The notes under the pieces were generated by a model. The model searched no databases and was not told where the DNA came from. It saw only the letters and a list, made by a program, of their open reading frames with translations. Shown here one piece after another: positions 17,170 through 38,434 of a stretch of 38,966 nucleotides of DNA (the first letter of the stretch is position 1; every line of letters starts with the position of its first letter). Source of the stretch: Actinomycetota bacterium (GTDB lineage Bacteria; Actinomycetota; Actinomycetes; Nanopelagicales; Nanopelagicaceae); the NCBI GenBank assembly GCA_009701185.1, contig WLKQ01000006.1:1-38966 (forward strand). The letters run 5' to 3'. The translations under genes and the position numbers were made by a program.

Positions 17170-18600
17170 CTACTGAGCCTCTTCAATGGCCCGTTTGGCA
17201 GGATTGCCTGACTTGGACTTCTTCTTCTGGACAACGCTCTTCTTAGGCGCGCTCATAGCCGGCATTCCGGGAGGCATTCCCGCCGGCATTGCCCCGTTTC
17301 GGACCTGCTTCATCATCTTTTGAGCCGCCGAGAATCTATCGACCAGATTATTTACATCAGTGACCGCCCTGCCCGAACCCAGGGCAATACGCGCTCGCCT
17401 AGAGCCGTTGAGCAGCTTGGGATCGCGACGCTCAGTGGGTGTCATTGATTGAACGATGGCCCTTGTGCGAATTATTTCGCCTTCATCAAAATTATCAATC
17501 TGTTTCTTCATGGCAGCAGAACCAGGCAACATTGATAAGAGTTTGGACATTGAACCCATCTTCGACATTGCTTGCAGTTGGTCTAAGAAATCCTCCAATG
17601 TAAAATCTTCACCGCTTGCAAACTTCGCCTCTAACTTTGCTGACGTGTCACCGTCAAATGCCTTCTTTGCCTGCTCGGCCAAAGTGGCAACATCGCCCAA
17701 ACCTAAGATTCGAGATGCCATTCGATCTGGATAGAAAATATCAAAGTCGCTGAGTTTTTCTCCAGTTGAAGCAAACATGATTGGTCGTTCGGTCAGAGAT
17801 GCTATCGAGAGCGCAGCACCACCACGAGCATCACCATCGAGTTTTGTAAGGACAACACCATCAAAACCAACGCCATCTAGAAATGCCTGCGAAGTTCGAA
17901 CAGCGTCTTGACCCATCATGGCATCAACAACAAAGAGAATTTCATCGGGTTTAACTGCATCACGTATGCGTACTGCTTCATTCATTAAATTTTCATCAAC
18001 ACCAAGTCGTCCAGCTGTATCAACGATGACCATGTTGTACTGCTTAGCGTGTGCAAATTCGATACCAGCTTGCGCAACTTTTACCGGATCACCGACTCCA
18101 TTTCCGCTTTCAGGTGCAAAAACCGGAACATTAATGCTCTCCCCCACAACTTGTAGTTGTGTAACTGCATTGGGGCGTTGTAGATCGGATGCAACCAAAA
18201 GTGGAGTGTTTCCTTGGTCGGCATAAAACTTAGCTAATTTTCCGGCGAGAGTTGTTTTACCTGCGCCTTGTAAACCTGCCAACATAATGATTGTTGGCCC
18301 TTTTTTAGCAAAGCGAACTCGACGAGCTTGTCCACCTAAAATCTCAATCAGTTCTGCATTTACGATGTCAAAGATGACTTGACCTTGGTTAGTTCCAGAT
18401 TGCACAGTGGGCAGTACTGCCAAGGATTTTTCACTTATGCGTGCAACGAAACTATCGACAACGCTGAGCGCTACATCCGATTCGAGGAGCGCTTGGCGGA
18501 TCTCTGCACACGTTTTCTCAATATCTGATTGAGAGATTCGCCCTCGTGAGCGCAGCGCGCCAAAGGCAGATGTGAAGCGAGAGGACAGAGATTCGAACAT
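17170..18600 (-). CDS. ffh: signal recognition particle protein Ffh (SRP54)
   Basis: A 476-residue SRP GTPase. The N domain is at residues 1-90 and the G domain at about 95-300, with P-loop GLQGAGKT (109-116), the DTAGRLGVDE motif and TKLDGDARGG. The methionine-rich M domain that binds signal peptides and 4.5S RNA follows (MSKMGSMSKLLSMLPG, MMKQVR). The tail is Met/Pro/Gly-rich and then very basic. It follows glnD by 12 bp. Its receptor ftsY is encoded at 22669-23508, with glnD, glnB and amt between. Confidence 0.97.
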   Translation of the reverse strand: MFESLSSRFTSAFGALRSRGRISQSDIEKTCAEIRQALLESDVALSVVDSFVARISEKSLAVLPTVQSGTNQGQVIFDIVNAELIEILGGQARRVRFAKKGPTIIMLAGLQGAGKTTLAGKLAKFYADQGNTPLLVASDLQRPNAVTQLQVVGESINVPVFAPESGNGVGDPVKVAQAGIEFAHAKQYNMVIVDTAGRLGVDENLMNEAVRIRDAVKPDEILFVVDAMMGQDAVRTSQAFLDGVGFDGVVLTKLDGDARGGAALSIASLTERPIMFASTGEKLSDFDIFYPDRMASRILGLGDVATLAEQAKKAFDGDTSAKLEAKFASGEDFTLEDFLDQLQAMSKMGSMSKLLSMLPGSAAMKKQIDNFDEGEIIRTRAIVQSMTPTERRDPKLLNGSRRARIALGSGRAVTDVNNLVDRFSAAQKMMKQVRNGAMPAGMPPGMPAMSAPKKSVVQKKKSKSGNPAKRAIEEAQ

Positions 18601-18612
18601 AGTGCGCTAAGA

Positions 18613-20883
18613 CTACGCCAGAGCCGCTCGTAATCGCGACGTGACTTCTTCTGCTCGTACATTGCTCAATGGGCCACCAGTGAGTTCAGTGACATAGAGG
18701 GTATCGATAGCTTCTGCACCAAGAGTGGTAACAATGGCAGATCGAATATCAACTTTTGAGTGCGTAATTGCAGCACCAATTCTAAAAAGTAGTCCGGGGC
18801 GATCATGACTTCGCACTTCGATAACTGTTGCATCAGTTGCTGCCTCGTTGAAGTAGACGACGTTAGGCGCCGGAACAGGAATTGTTGGAATGGTGGCATA
18901 AATCTTTGCACGGGCCAAAAGTTTTTCTTCAACTGCTTCAGAGTCTTTCACCGCTTTTTCGATCTCATCTCGAAGGCCGTCAGAAGTAATAACTGGTGCA
19001 TGTGGTTGTGGGCTGACAATCCAATACATCACGGCAGATTTTCCATGGGTTTTTGTTCGTGCAGATTTAACATCCAGGCGTGAAATATTCAAAACGCCAG
19101 CAATGAGCGAGAGCAAGCCTGGCATATCTGGTGAAACTATTTCGATCGAATATCCACTCGAATGCTCTAATAATTCAATCGTTAATTCTCCGTTTTCAGC
19201 TAAATCTAACTGCGCTTGACTCAATGATGGTTGTTCGGCAATCTGTGAACCAGACATAAACTTTCGAGTGCGTGTAACTAAATCTGAGACCAACGCCGCC
19301 TTCCAATCACTCCAACCAGCACTTCCAGTTGCTTCGCCGTCTGCAACGCTCAGGGCATGTAGAAGCTCTAGAGTATTTAGATCTGGAATTACGGCGGTTA
19401 TCGATGCGATCGTTGCTGGATCATCTAAGTCACGACGCGTTGCAGTAGATGAGAGCAGTAAATGATGACGAACTAGCAGCTGCAATGTTGCTATGTCTTC
19501 ATTTGAAAATCCTACGCGCTCGGCAATGGGTGCAATCAAGCGCTCACCTCGTTCAGAATGATCTTCTTCTCCCCCTTTTCCAATATCGTGGAAGAGGGAT
19601 GCAAATAGCAGTAAATCTGGGCGGTGCACTTTGCGTGTTAATGAAGCGGCATGGACTGCTGTCTCGACCATATGCCTATCCACGGTATGTCTATGGAGTG
19701 CATTTCGCTGCGGAAGGGAGCGAACAGCGCGCCACTCAGGTATCCAACTAAAGATAATTTCCTCTTGGTCTAACATTTCAAATATTGGAACCATGGCTTC
19801 GCCAGCACCAATTAATGAGATTAACAATTCACGGCCTTCTCGTGGCCATGGCGTTGGGAGTGCAGATTTACCTGCAGCAAGGGACGTTGTGATCATTTCG
19901 CAGGTTTCTAATGACAGTCGAAGCCCAAGCTGGGCCGCCGTAGCAGCTGCGCGCAGAGAGATGACGGGGTCACTATGCAAATCCGCCGCATCATCAATAA
20001 CGATTTCATTATTAACGACACTAATATTTTTAGCTACGGACTGGGCATTATTCGAGCTTTTAGCTTTTCGTGAAGAATGGTGAAGATCCAATAAGTGCCA
20101 GATATAACCGAGTAAATAATCTACAGATCGTGCCGCTTGAGCAACATCGCTCATCATGACATCTGCATCGGCATATGCAAGTGCATGAGCAACTTTATCT
20201 TGCTCTTGAAAAAGTAATCTATCTTTACTGCGACCACTTACTGTGTGCAAGGCTTCTCGCACGTCATCTAACGTTGAGTGTGCTCGGCTCACTCGTTCCA
20301 GCGGAACAGTCACAACCTCTGCAGCCGCTATTGCGTGAAGTGCATTGATATCACGCAAGCCACCGCGTGCCTCTTTTACGTCGGGCTCAAGAAGATACGC
20401 CAACTCTCCCGCACGAATATGGCGTTGCTCCATAGATGCCTTAAGTTCTATTAATCGCGTGCCAGATTCTTTTCGCCATGATTGCTTAGAATCGTTTGCC
20501 ACACTTTCTACTAAATCAGAATCCCCCGCCACAAAGCGAATATCGAGCAGACCAAGTGCTACTTTCAAATCTGAATGCGCAGCTTCCTTGGTTTGTACGC
20601 GTGTTCTGACTGAATGATCAACCTTGTAAGCATCCCAGAGTGGATATAGCAACGCATTTACAAATTTTCCGAGCTTGTCCTCTGAGAACTGCCCTTGATG
20701 CAGAATGAGAATATCTAGATCCGAACCCGGTGAAAGTTCACCTCTGCCATAACCGCCTACTGCGGCAATTGCAATTCCTTGTGGCTCTAAAACAGCTAAA
20801 TGCTCATACGTTGCCATAGAAAAAAGCGAGAGAAGAGTGAGATCACTTTTATGCGATCGCTCTCTTCTCTCGCTTTTACTCAT
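18613..20883 (-). CDS. glnD: PII uridylyl-/adenylyltransferase and uridylyl-removing enzyme GlnD
   Basis: A 756-residue bifunctional nitrogen sensor. The nucleotidyltransferase motif is GGYGRGE (43-49) with DLD (55-57), the HD hydrolase motif is FHDIGKG (431-437), and two ACT glutamine-sensing domains follow at about 570-640 and 680-756. In Actinobacteria the modified target is Tyr51 of GlnB/GlnK, often by adenylylation. It is 50-130 residues shorter than the E. coli or mycobacterial enzymes, mostly at the N terminus. The first 21 codons contain a perfect 16-bp inverted repeat (see repeat entry). TAAGAT 6 nt before the ATG and no Shine-Dalgarno point to a leaderless start that overlaps the end of glnB. 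Confidence 0.94.
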   Translation of the reverse strand: MSKSERRERSHKSDLTLLSLFSMATYEHLAVLEPQGIAIAAVGGYGRGELSPGSDLDILILHQGQFSEDKLGKFVNALLYPLWDAYKVDHSVRTRVQTKEAAHSDLKVALGLLDIRFVAGDSDLVESVANDSKQSWRKESGTRLIELKASMEQRHIRAGELAYLLEPDVKEARGGLRDINALHAIAAAEVVTVPLERVSRAHSTLDDVREALHTVSGRSKDRLLFQEQDKVAHALAYADADVMMSDVAQAARSVDYLLGYIWHLLDLHHSSRKAKSSNNAQSVAKNISVVNNEIVIDDAADLHSDPVISLRAAATAAQLGLRLSLETCEMITTSLAAGKSALPTPWPREGRELLISLIGAGEAMVPIFEMLDQEEIIFSWIPEWRAVRSLPQRNALHRHTVDRHMVETAVHAASLTRKVHRPDLLLFASLFHDIGKGGEEDHSERGERLIAPIAERVGFSNEDIATLQLLVRHHLLLSSTATRRDLDDPATIASITAVIPDLNTLELLHALSVADGEATGSAGWSDWKAALVSDLVTRTRKFMSGSQIAEQPSLSQAQLDLAENGELTIELLEHSSGYSIEIVSPDMPGLLSLIAGVLNISRLDVKSARTKTHGKSAVMYWIVSPQPHAPVITSDGLRDEIEKAVKDSEAVEEKLLARAKIYATIPTIPVPAPNVVYFNEAATDATVIEVRSHDRPGLLFRIGAAITHSKVDIRSAIVTTLGAEAIDTLYVTELTGGPLSNVRAEEVTSRLRAALA
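20822..20877. repeat. perfect 16-bp inverted repeat in the start of glnD
   Basis: AAAAGCGAGAGAAGAG (20822-20837) is exactly complementary to CTCTTCTCTCGCTTTT (20862-20877), separated by 24 nt that contain another palindrome, GCGATCGC. In mRNA this is a long stem starting about 6 nt after the glnD start codon. Confidence 0.85.
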
Positions 20884-20892
20884 GCCTATATC

Positions 20893-22532
<1,640 letters not shown>

Positions 22533-22603
22533 AAGAGAGTCTGCTTTCAGTAAAAATCTAAGAGTTCTTGCCTTTGAGATGGGGCCAAAGATGCCCGCCA
22601 TGG

Positions 22604-32687: not shown

Positions 32688-33608
32688 TTAATTGAAATGG
32701 CGCCAGGTATCTGGCGCTTTTTTCATTTCTAAACCTGCGACACCCTTTCCGTCAGTTACCGTGCCAACGTGAAGACCTGGCAAGTCTTTACCAGTTGCAA
32801 GAAAAACATGATCTTCTCCCCCAGCAAAAATCCACTGCCAGACATCCACCGAGTGCTTGTCGGCTAACTCTTTCAGCGCTACATACTCTGGGTGATGCGT
32901 GAATAACTGCGCATCAAATTCAAATCGAACTCCCGATGCCTGCGCCATTTGTTCTGATTGAATAATAAGTGCATCACTAATATCGCACATCGCTGTTGCA
33001 CCAGAGCTTGCCAACAACGCTCCAGCGGAGTAGTCCACACTTGGTGCGCAAAACTGATCGATTGCATAGCCTTCAAGGTCATCGAAATTCTCGTTGCTAA
33101 TAAGTGCCAGGCCAGCAGCCGACCACCCTGGAAGTGCTGAGAGGTAGATTGCCTCCCCAATTCCGGCGCCAGAGCGAGTGATGTGTCTTTCAACTGCGCC
33201 AACTGCAGTCATAGCGATTACTTTTGTAGCGCCTTGCGTTAAATCTCCACCTACTACCGAGGCTCCACAACTCCGCGCTTCATGTGCAATGCCCTGGGCA
33301 AGTTCACGAATCCACTCCATACTTTCATCGCCCGACAGAGTCATCGCTACTACTAAGTATTGTGGAATGGCTCCCATTGCATAGATGTCAGCTAAATTCG
33401 CTGCTGTAATCTTTCGTCCAATATCAAAAGCACTCGACCACGCAGTATTGAAATGAGTCCCTTCCACAGCCATATCTGTCGTAATCACTGAACGCGGCTG
33501 CGTTGAAACAACGGCAGCGTCATCACCGATACCAACAATGAGGCCAGGATCGTCTGTGGCAAAGATTTCTGCCAGCATCCCAATCACCTGCGACTCCTCA
33601 AAGGCCAT
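32688..33608 (-). CDS. thiL: thiamine-monophosphate kinase
   Basis: A 306-residue PurM/ThiL-fold kinase phosphorylating ThMP to ThDP. The N-terminal GIGDDAAVV and ITTDMAVEGTHF carry Mg/ATP ligands, and the VGGDLTQG and GGEDHVFLA segments complete the site. ATG 33608 with AAGG 7 nt upstream is preferred over TTG at 33614. The last 10 codons overlap the rpmB terminator, so the 3' ends are packed together. Divergent from the Lrp/AsnC-domain gene. A thiL-Lrp/AsnC-ddl-gpsA neighbourhood is common in actinobacteria. Confidence 0.93.
   Translation of the reverse strand: MAFEESQVIGMLAEIFATDDPGLIVGIGDDAAVVSTQPRSVITTDMAVEGTHFNTAWSSAFDIGRKITAANLADIYAMGAIPQYLVVAMTLSGDESMEWIRELAQGIAHEARSCGASVVGGDLTQGATKVIAMTAVGAVERHITRSGAGIGEAIYLSALPGWSAAGLALISNENFDDLEGYAIDQFCAPSVDYSAGALLASSGATAMCDISDALIIQSEQMAQASGVRFEFDAQLFTHHPEYVALKELADKHSVDVWQWIFAGGEDHVFLATGKDLPGLHVGTVTDGKGVAGLEMKKAPDTWRHFN
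32700..32723 (+). terminator. intrinsic terminator of rpmB inside the thiL 3' end
   Basis: GCGCCAG (32700-32706), loop GTAT, CTGGCGC (32711-32717), followed by six T. The stem lies in the convergent thiL coding sequence. An extra T run precedes it at 32679-32685. Confidence 0.9.
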
Positions 33609-38375: not shown

Positions 38376-38413
38376 GTAGGAAAAGAAAACGGGGCCAGCT
38401 TTAGCCGGCCCCG
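38376..38413 (-). terminator. intrinsic terminator of HU
   Basis: On the minus strand CGGGGCC (38413-38407) pairs with GGCCCCG (38396-38390), plus an inner GC pair around a small loop, followed by a TTTTCTTTTCC tail. Confidence 0.85.
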
Positions 38414-38434
38414 CCTTTAAAAAGTTAAAAAGAA

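What the first reader, a model, noticed from the sequence alone, without database searches (positions are those of the whole stretch)
20822..20877. Perfect 16-bp inverted repeat inside the first 21 codons of glnD
AAAAGCGAGAGAAGAG and its exact complement are 24 nt apart within coding sequence, with a palindrome in the loop. A 16-bp perfect match in coding DNA is unlikely by chance. With a probable leaderless start, the stem would begin near the mRNA 5' end and could limit translation, act as an attenuator or be cut by RNase III. This region is poorly conserved in GlnD proteins, so it is free to carry an RNA signal.
Basis: seen in the sequence. Interest (0 to 1): 0.55.

Follow-up and report, generated by a model that had tools for sequence, protein, structure and literature searches.

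The report
Hidden RNA hairpin opening the glnD gene
A long RNA hairpin that marks the end of a nitrogen-sensing operon is written into the first codons of the next gene, glnD, and in freshwater actinobacteria both halves change together over evolution, so one stretch of DNA carries a protein start and an RNA signal at once.

Summary
The inverted repeat is real: a perfect 16-bp match inside 23-nt arms at 20822-20844/20855-20877, in codons 3-21 of glnD. It is the longest short-loop perfect repeat in 427 kb of this genome that I scanned. Relatives keep a hairpin there far beyond what the encoded protein requires: against synonymous recodings, 50 of 79 distinct sequences in the genus, 19 of 19 and 12 of 12 in two other genera, and only there in the gene. 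Both arms change together (including amino-acid swaps), and G-U pairs on the mRNA strand outnumber A-C, so selection acts on the mRNA. The hairpin follows the end of glnB rather than glnD itself. Where glnD is lost and ffh comes next, hairpins often stand between glnB and ffh, or inside the ffh start when the gap is about 20 nt; ffh behind glnD has none. My best reading is a boundary element ending the amt-glnB transcript, probably an intrinsic terminator, pushed into the next ORF. A leaderless promoter motif overlaps the glnB stop, so translation could gate the hairpin; that is inference. The U-tract association disappears after correction for phylogeny, and no transcript data exist here.

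The parts
20855..20877 (-). 5' arm of the hairpin in the mRNA (inside glnD codons 3-10); 20862-20877 is the perfect 16-bp part
20822..20844 (-). 3' arm of the hairpin in the mRNA (inside glnD codons 14-21); 20822-20837 is the perfect 16-bp part
20845..20854 (-). terminal loop of the extended hairpin
20820..20825 (-). run of six U at the foot of the 3' arm (four inside the arm, two beyond): terminator-like tail
   Evidence: sequence; U-tract statistics
20890..20895 (-). TAAGAT, -10-like element 6 nt before the glnD ATG, overlapping the glnB stop codon TAA (20893-20895); predicted leaderless promoter of glnD
18613..20883 (-). glnD, PII uridylyl/adenylyltransferase, 756 aa, whose first 21 codons hold the hairpin
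20893..21231 (-). glnB/glnK (PII), gene whose end the hairpin follows
21231..22601 (-). amt, ammonium transporter, first gene of the presumed amt-glnB unit
17170..18600 (-). ffh (SRP54), next gene after glnD; follows glnB directly in glnD-less relatives

Best explanation
It is an RNA boundary hairpin of the nitrogen-regulated amt-glnB transcript. When RNA polymerase has passed the glnB stop codon, the nascent RNA folds into a long hairpin. Here and in several lineages a U-tract follows, the form of an intrinsic terminator, so most amt-glnB transcripts should end (or be trimmed and protected) about 60-75 nt beyond glnB. This insulates the downstream genes glnD, ffh and beyond from the nitrogen-regulated promoter. 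Because glnB and glnD are only 9 nt apart, the hairpin had to be written into the first 21 codons of glnD, and the protein's N-terminus has evolved with it. Shown by sequence: the structure is conserved, covarying, on the mRNA strand, and tied to the end of glnB. Inferred: that its effect is termination or 3'-end formation, that amt-glnB is nitrogen-regulated here, and that glnD is expressed from the leaderless promoter and by read-through.
For: Folding exceeds synonymous recodings only at codons 2-27 (mean z -4.60 in 26 full-length glnD; the other 28 windows lie between -0.84 and +0.59); 50/79 (own genus g1), 19/19 (g25), 12/12 (g34) and 1/1 (g39) rank in the top 2 of 200. Compensatory changes: 56 cells changed on both sides against 18.4 in shuffles, covariation 0.259 against at most 0.098 when slid (40 sequences picked for strong folding in one register). 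G-U over A-C: 60:16, 31:7, 24:8. Different genera use different stems and registers. The hairpin follows glnB: ffh directly after glnB with a 19-20-nt gap is structured in 6/7 (g32) but in 1/47 when ffh follows glnD. In g31 the gap between glnB and ffh holds hairpins, 8/9 with z <= -3, several with canonical U-runs. In g26 the hairpin is in the spacer, 3/3. Outside the family 27/42 glnK-glnD junctions have a window with z < -4. In g1 the in-gene hairpin is strongest where the glnB-glnD gap is at most 14 nt: 30/37, against 10/23 (15-35 nt) and 3/18 (36 nt or more). Six of the ten longest repeats of the scanned genome are intergenic.
Against: No U-tract excess in g34 and g35. Within g1 the U-tract/hairpin association (CTT 30/44 against 1/35) is not significant after phylogenetic contrasts (r -0.16, t -1.1, 48 sequences). 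29/79 g1 sequences, 11/14 g35, 1/1 g40, 2/2 g37 and 3/3 g26 do not reach the top 2 of 200 in the in-gene window. In g1 and g35 with long glnB-glnD gaps the gap usually holds no replacement hairpin (mean z -0.29, n 18; -0.01, n 9). Only 19 of 44 glnB-ffh junctions have z <= -3. A terminator lying behind the predicted glnD promoter would also hit glnD's own transcript unless something relieves it. Published work treats amtB-glnK-glnD as one operon in Streptomyces (PMC5826061, passages), so read-through must occur there. No transcript ends were measured.
Confidence: 0.5

Rival explanations
1. Translational brake: the hairpin, starting within about 4-10 nt of the glnD start codon, blocks ribosome entry and reinitiation, so that GlnD is made in much smaller amounts than PII and AmtB. 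No termination is involved.
For: Position right behind the start codon and conserved there in g1, g25 and g34, also without U-tracts; strongest in g1 when the glnB stop is within 14 nt, where reinitiation would be expected; sense strand folds better than antisense in 55/79, 19/19 and 8/12.
Against: The hairpin stays with the glnB end when glnD is gone: in g31, g36 and several g1 genomes it lies in the glnB-ffh gap, outside any start region, and ffh behind glnD lacks it.
Confidence: 0.2
2. Double-strand RNA cleavage or 3'-end protection: RNase III (or another nuclease) cuts the long stem and separates a stable amt-glnB mRNA from a short-lived glnD mRNA; termination is not the primary event.
For: Long stems conserved as structure only, with a U-tract in some genera only. 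In C. glutamicum most mapped ends at predicted terminators lie within stem 1, and the authors suggest processing by RNases that cut double strands (PMC3890552, passages read).
Against: No cleavage data; canonical hairpin/U-run terminators in the same place in g31 fit termination better.
Confidence: 0.2
3. By-product: a mutational process (template switching at quasi-palindromes in DNA) keeps restoring the palindrome, or protein constraint alone produces it.
For: Perfect arms and shared changes would also follow from template switching; the protein motif MGTRERRxRS is conserved.
Against: Protein constraint is excluded as the sole cause by recoding. A DNA process predicts equal G-U and A-C; observed 60:16, 31:7, 24:8, though at wobble-wobble pairs g25 is 6:6 and the g1 weak folders are 71:71 overall. 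Different sequences and registers at one place in several genera, and tracking of glnB, are not expected from a local mutational bias.
Confidence: 0.06

Closest known systems
Intrinsic (Rho-independent) transcription terminator
   Same: Long stem followed by a U-run in this window, in most g1 strong folders and in g25, at the end of a transcription unit; several g31 relatives have textbook terminators at the same junction.
   Different: Embedded in the first 21 codons of the next gene and coevolving with its amino acids; no U-run excess in g34 and g35; termination not measured.
Inverted repeats 25-60 bp downstream of start codons in E. coli (PMC6060812; abstract and passages read)
   Same: An enriched zone of inverted repeats early in ORFs, for which the authors suggest a possible riboregulator role.
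   Different: There a genome-wide statistic on inverted repeats in one species; here one locus with covariation, a mRNA-strand bias and a link to the upstream gene's end.
RNase III-processed terminator hairpins (int gene retroregulation, mentioned in PMC3890552, passages)
   Same: Long hairpin after a gene that can be both terminator and cleavage site.
   Different: Here the hairpin lies in the coding start of the next gene; no cleavage evidence.
Leaderless genes of Actinobacteria (e.g. PMC3160421, PMC4633059; search listings only)
   Same: TANNNT 6-7 nt before the start codon at glnD and at 78 of 372 ORFs of this genome.
   Different: A leaderless start followed at once by a conserved strong hairpin is unusual, because leaderless initiation is thought to want an open 5' end (recalled).

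Membership tests
Intrinsic transcription terminator | Stable hairpin formed in the RNA, beyond chance | tested here: met
   z -7.9; recoding test; mRNA-strand bias
Intrinsic transcription terminator | U-tract right after the stem | tested here: inconclusive
   Present here (UUUUUU); T-run 4.20 against 3.17 expected in 44 g1 strong folders and 5.11 against 3.78 in 19 g25; no excess in g34/g35; not significant after phylogenetic contrasts
Intrinsic transcription terminator | Lies at the end of a transcription unit | tested here: inconclusive
   Tracks the end of glnB in several lineages whatever gene follows, but that amt-glnB is the unit is not shown by transcript data
Intrinsic transcription terminator | RNA polymerase actually stops there | not testable with these tools
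   No transcript or in vitro data
Attenuator/riboswitch of a known RNA family | Match to a known Rfam family | tested here: not met
   No Rfam match reached its gathering score (only low-scoring microRNA-precursor models)
Attenuator/riboswitch of a known RNA family | Conserved aptamer or antiterminator competing with the hairpin | not tested
   A competing structure was not searched systematically; sequence and register of the hairpin change freely between genera
Leaderless gene | -10 element 6-7 nt upstream of the start codon | tested here: met
   75/79 g1, 19/19 g25, 11/12 g34, 3/3 g26, 0/14 g35, 0/2 g37
Leaderless gene | Transcription starts at the first base of the start codon | not testable with these tools
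   No TSS data
RNase III substrate | Cleavage in the stem | not testable with these tools
   Long near-perfect stem present; cleavage unknown
Dispersed palindromic repeat element (RPE/REP-like) | Further copies elsewhere in the genome | tested here: not met
   Own genome: only this site; window: only the two arms exactly. For the relatives' core the coordinates of many glnD hits coincide with the pattern hits, but not every hit was checked

The most novel reading that the evidence does not exclude
A translation-gated terminator: the same hairpin ends transcripts arriving from amt-glnB, because their ribosomes stop at the glnB stop codon and cannot start on the glnD AUG, but is read through by transcripts starting at the leaderless glnD promoter, because a 70S ribosome loads at once on the 5'-terminal AUG and keeps the stem open. 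It would let a streamlined genome insulate two adjacent transcription units with no intergenic space, at the price of an RNA-shaped protein N-terminus, and would be old enough to be shared, in changing forms, across Actinomycetes.
Probability: 0.22. Interest if true: 0.78.

Novelty: new variant of a known kind. Interest (0 to 1): 0.57.

Why it matters
It is a clear natural case of one sequence serving as a protein N-terminus and as a conserved mRNA structure, with amino-acid pairs that covary because their codons pair. It suggests how gene-dense genomes can keep operon boundaries without intergenic DNA, it touches the level of GlnD (the enzyme that modifies PII) in very abundant freshwater bacteria, and it gives a testable prediction for laboratory Actinomycetes, since many class-level relatives have a strong hairpin at the glnK-glnD boundary.

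Tried and rejected
Glutamine or other known riboswitch: no Rfam match above gathering score. Dispersed repeat or mobile palindrome: no second copy in the own genome. Wrong start codon (hairpin in fact intergenic, true start at the Met downstream of it): rejected, because relatives are similar from the upstream Met onward and keep the frame. Conserved loop as a binding site: the loop AACGAGAG is shared by many g1 and g35 sequences but is not kept in the window clade, g25 or g34, so it is not the common feature. Literature searches for a description of this hairpin listed none whose title or abstract start describes it, but only open-licence papers are held.

The consensus terminator scan missed the site, probably because of the interrupted stem. 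The spacer/hairpin correlation in g1 was not corrected for phylogeny. The class-level controls are not perfectly matched: junctions of varying length (up to 400 nt) against a control of at most 150 nt, taking the minimum over windows in both. Four of the seven class-level in-gene hits are from one genus (g19).

Full report
Observation. On the minus strand the order is ftsY, amt (21231-22601), glnB (20893-21231), glnD (18613-20883) and ffh (17170-18600). The 16-bp perfect inverted repeat lies at the stated place inside codons 3-21 of glnD. With a short interruption it extends to 23-nt arms and a 10-nt loop, folding at -40.3 kcal/mol, z -7.9. In 427 kb (window plus 20 other contig pieces of the same genome) only ten perfect arms of at least 11 bp with loops of at most 30 nt were found and this is the longest; six of the ten are intergenic.

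Is it coding? Yes. GlnD relatives in the genus are similar from about query residue 4 (the Met at 20883) onward, with an open frame. The N-terminus M-G-T-R-E-R-R-x-R-S... recurs in the family, so the finding's remark that the region is poorly conserved is only partly right.

Is the structure conserved beyond the protein? I compared each start region (codons 2-27) with 200 synonymous recodings drawn from the genus's codon usage. I had 131 distinct regions; GlnD was found in 183 of 296 family genomes, of which I fetched many but not all. Eight loci without a recognisable motif, two without an anchor (L143, L184) and some of the last 20 fetched (16 kept) were dropped. Top 2 of 200: own genus g1 50/79, g25 19/19, g34 12/12, g39 1/1, g35 3/14, g26 0/3, g37 0/2, g40 0/1. 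A first run on codons 2-22 gave g1 56/79 and missed g34 (0/10), whose structure is longer. In 26 full-length g1 genes only this window is structured (mean z -4.60; the 28 others -0.84 to +0.59).

Architecture. The stems are not one conserved sequence. g1 has an arm pair centred near codon 11, often around the loop AACGAGAG; four g1 strong folders (L019, L020, L137, L138) are in another register. g25 has GGGAACCC.../...GGGTTTC stems followed by T-runs. g34 has a foot of about 12 bp or more with two hairpins on top. What is conserved is a strong structure at this place.

Covariation. On 40 g1 sequences (strong folders in one register, so selected for pairing) 89% of cells pair, with 9 of 21 pairs changing on both sides. 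Cells with double changes are 56 against 18.4 (sd 3.2) in shuffles, and the covariation score is 0.259 against 0.052-0.098 for slid versions; the number of pairs with both-side changes is not itself exceptional (61/500 shuffles reach it). g34 and g25 point the same way, though in g34 the number of pair types does not (468/500). Some pairs carry amino-acid changes, for instance Y/Y and N/F at the two variable residues of RERRxR and DRxL. On a 48-sequence tree the paired columns change repeatedly, e.g. pair 14-53 (counted from 0) with 13 doublet changes.

RNA or DNA? G-U exceeds A-C on the mRNA strand: g1 strong 60:16, g25 31:7, g34 24:8. In the g1 weak folders it is 71:71, in g35 3:2, and at wobble-wobble pairs 35:7, 6:6, 7:3 for g1 strong, g25, g34. 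The sense strand folds better than the antisense in 55/79, 19/19, 8/12 and 10/14 (g1, g25, g34, g35). This favours selection on the mRNA over a DNA-level palindrome or template switching.

Whose element is it? In glnD-less relatives glnB is followed by ffh. Of 45 such loci 44 could be read, and 19 of the 44 have z <= -3 across the junction: g31 8/9 (several with A-rich stem U-run terminators such as AAAAAAGGTGGA...TCCACCTTTTTT), g1 8/23, g32 2/7, g36 1/2, g28/g29 0/3. The clearest test uses the same gene ffh in two contexts. Behind glnD (g1) its start is unstructured (1/47 in the top 2 of 200, mean z -0.47). Directly behind glnB with a 19-20-nt gap (g32) it is structured (6/7, mean z -3.50). 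Behind glnB in g1 (gaps 27-133 nt) and in g31 (gaps 87-126 nt) the ffh start is unstructured (0/20 and 0/8). The two contexts come from different genera, so lineage and context are not fully separated. In g26 the hairpin is in the glnB-glnD gap (3/3, mean z -4.2), while long gaps in g1 and g35 mostly hold none. In g1 the in-gene hairpin goes with short gaps (at most 14 nt: 30/37; 15-35 nt: 10/23; 36 nt or more: 3/18; rho 0.60, not corrected for phylogeny). I conclude that the hairpin belongs to the end of amt-glnB.

Beyond the family. Of 67 class-level loci 42 gave a glnK-glnD junction. 27 of these 42 have a 75-nt window with z < -4, against 1 of 20 control regions downstream. Inside the coding start, 7 of 34 have recoding z < -3.5 against 1 of 19 controls; four of the seven are one genus with 8-9.5-Mb genomes (Streptomyces-like N-terminus, recalled). 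In others the hairpin is intergenic.

Mechanism. Two facts shape it. First, TAAGAT stands 6 nt before the glnD ATG and overlaps the glnB stop. TANNNT at N6-7 occurs in 75/79 g1, 19/19 g25, 11/12 g34 and 3/3 g26 glnD starts (0/14 g35, 0/2 g37) and at 78 of 372 ORFs of the own genome, against at most 6 ORFs at each other spacing and 25 of 2,405 internal ATGs, so leaderless starts are a real feature here. Second, a U-run follows the stem in this window, in most of 44 g1 strong folders (mean T-run 4.20 against 3.17 expected) and in g25 (5.11 against 3.78), but without excess in g34 or g35; in g1 the association does not survive phylogenetic contrasts. I conclude, as inference, that the hairpin forms the 3' boundary of amt-glnB by termination or by processing, and that glnD is served by its own leaderless promoter plus read-through. 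A translation gate would reconcile a terminator behind a promoter, but nothing here tests it.

Prior knowledge. amtB-glnK-glnD is treated as one GlnR-regulated operon in Streptomyces (PMC5826061, passages), and glnK and glnD were reported highly expressed together in Planobispora (PMC8269224, passages). Transcript ends inside terminator stems and possible processing are described for C. glutamicum (PMC3890552, passages). Inverted repeats are enriched 25-60 bp after E. coli start codons, function open (PMC6060812, abstract and passages). PMC9031893 (passages) describes 70S initiation on leaderless mRNA. No title or abstract start listed describes this element.

Noticed in passing
glnB-ffh junctions, e.g. 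L225, L228, L237, L240: In part of the genus and in several other genera glnD is absent while glnB is kept and abuts ffh; PII would then lack its usual modifying enzyme.
   Followed up: partly
L011-L014, between glnB stop and glnD start: One g1 clade carries a second small hairpin (TTTAGGGTTCGCCCCTAAA) in the glnB-glnD gap in addition to the in-gene hairpin.
   Followed up: no
window and L204-L223: TANNNT 6-7 nt before the start codon at 78 of 372 ORFs of at least 150 aa: leaderless genes appear common in this genome.
   Followed up: partly
g32 ffh starts, L240-L242, L278-L281: A roughly 10-bp stem (AGGCCAGAGA-like / TCTCTGGCCT-like) with a loop of about 13 nt is built into the early ffh codons, in 6 of 7 beyond synonymous recoding.
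   Followed up: yes
L208:4303-4335 and L207:16221-16258: Two other 15-bp perfect hairpins fall near called ORF starts in the own genome; the starts may be mis-called and the hairpins may be ordinary bidirectional terminators.
   Followed up: no
window 32699-32718 and 38386-38417: Ordinary strong terminator-like hairpins with T-runs.
   Followed up: no
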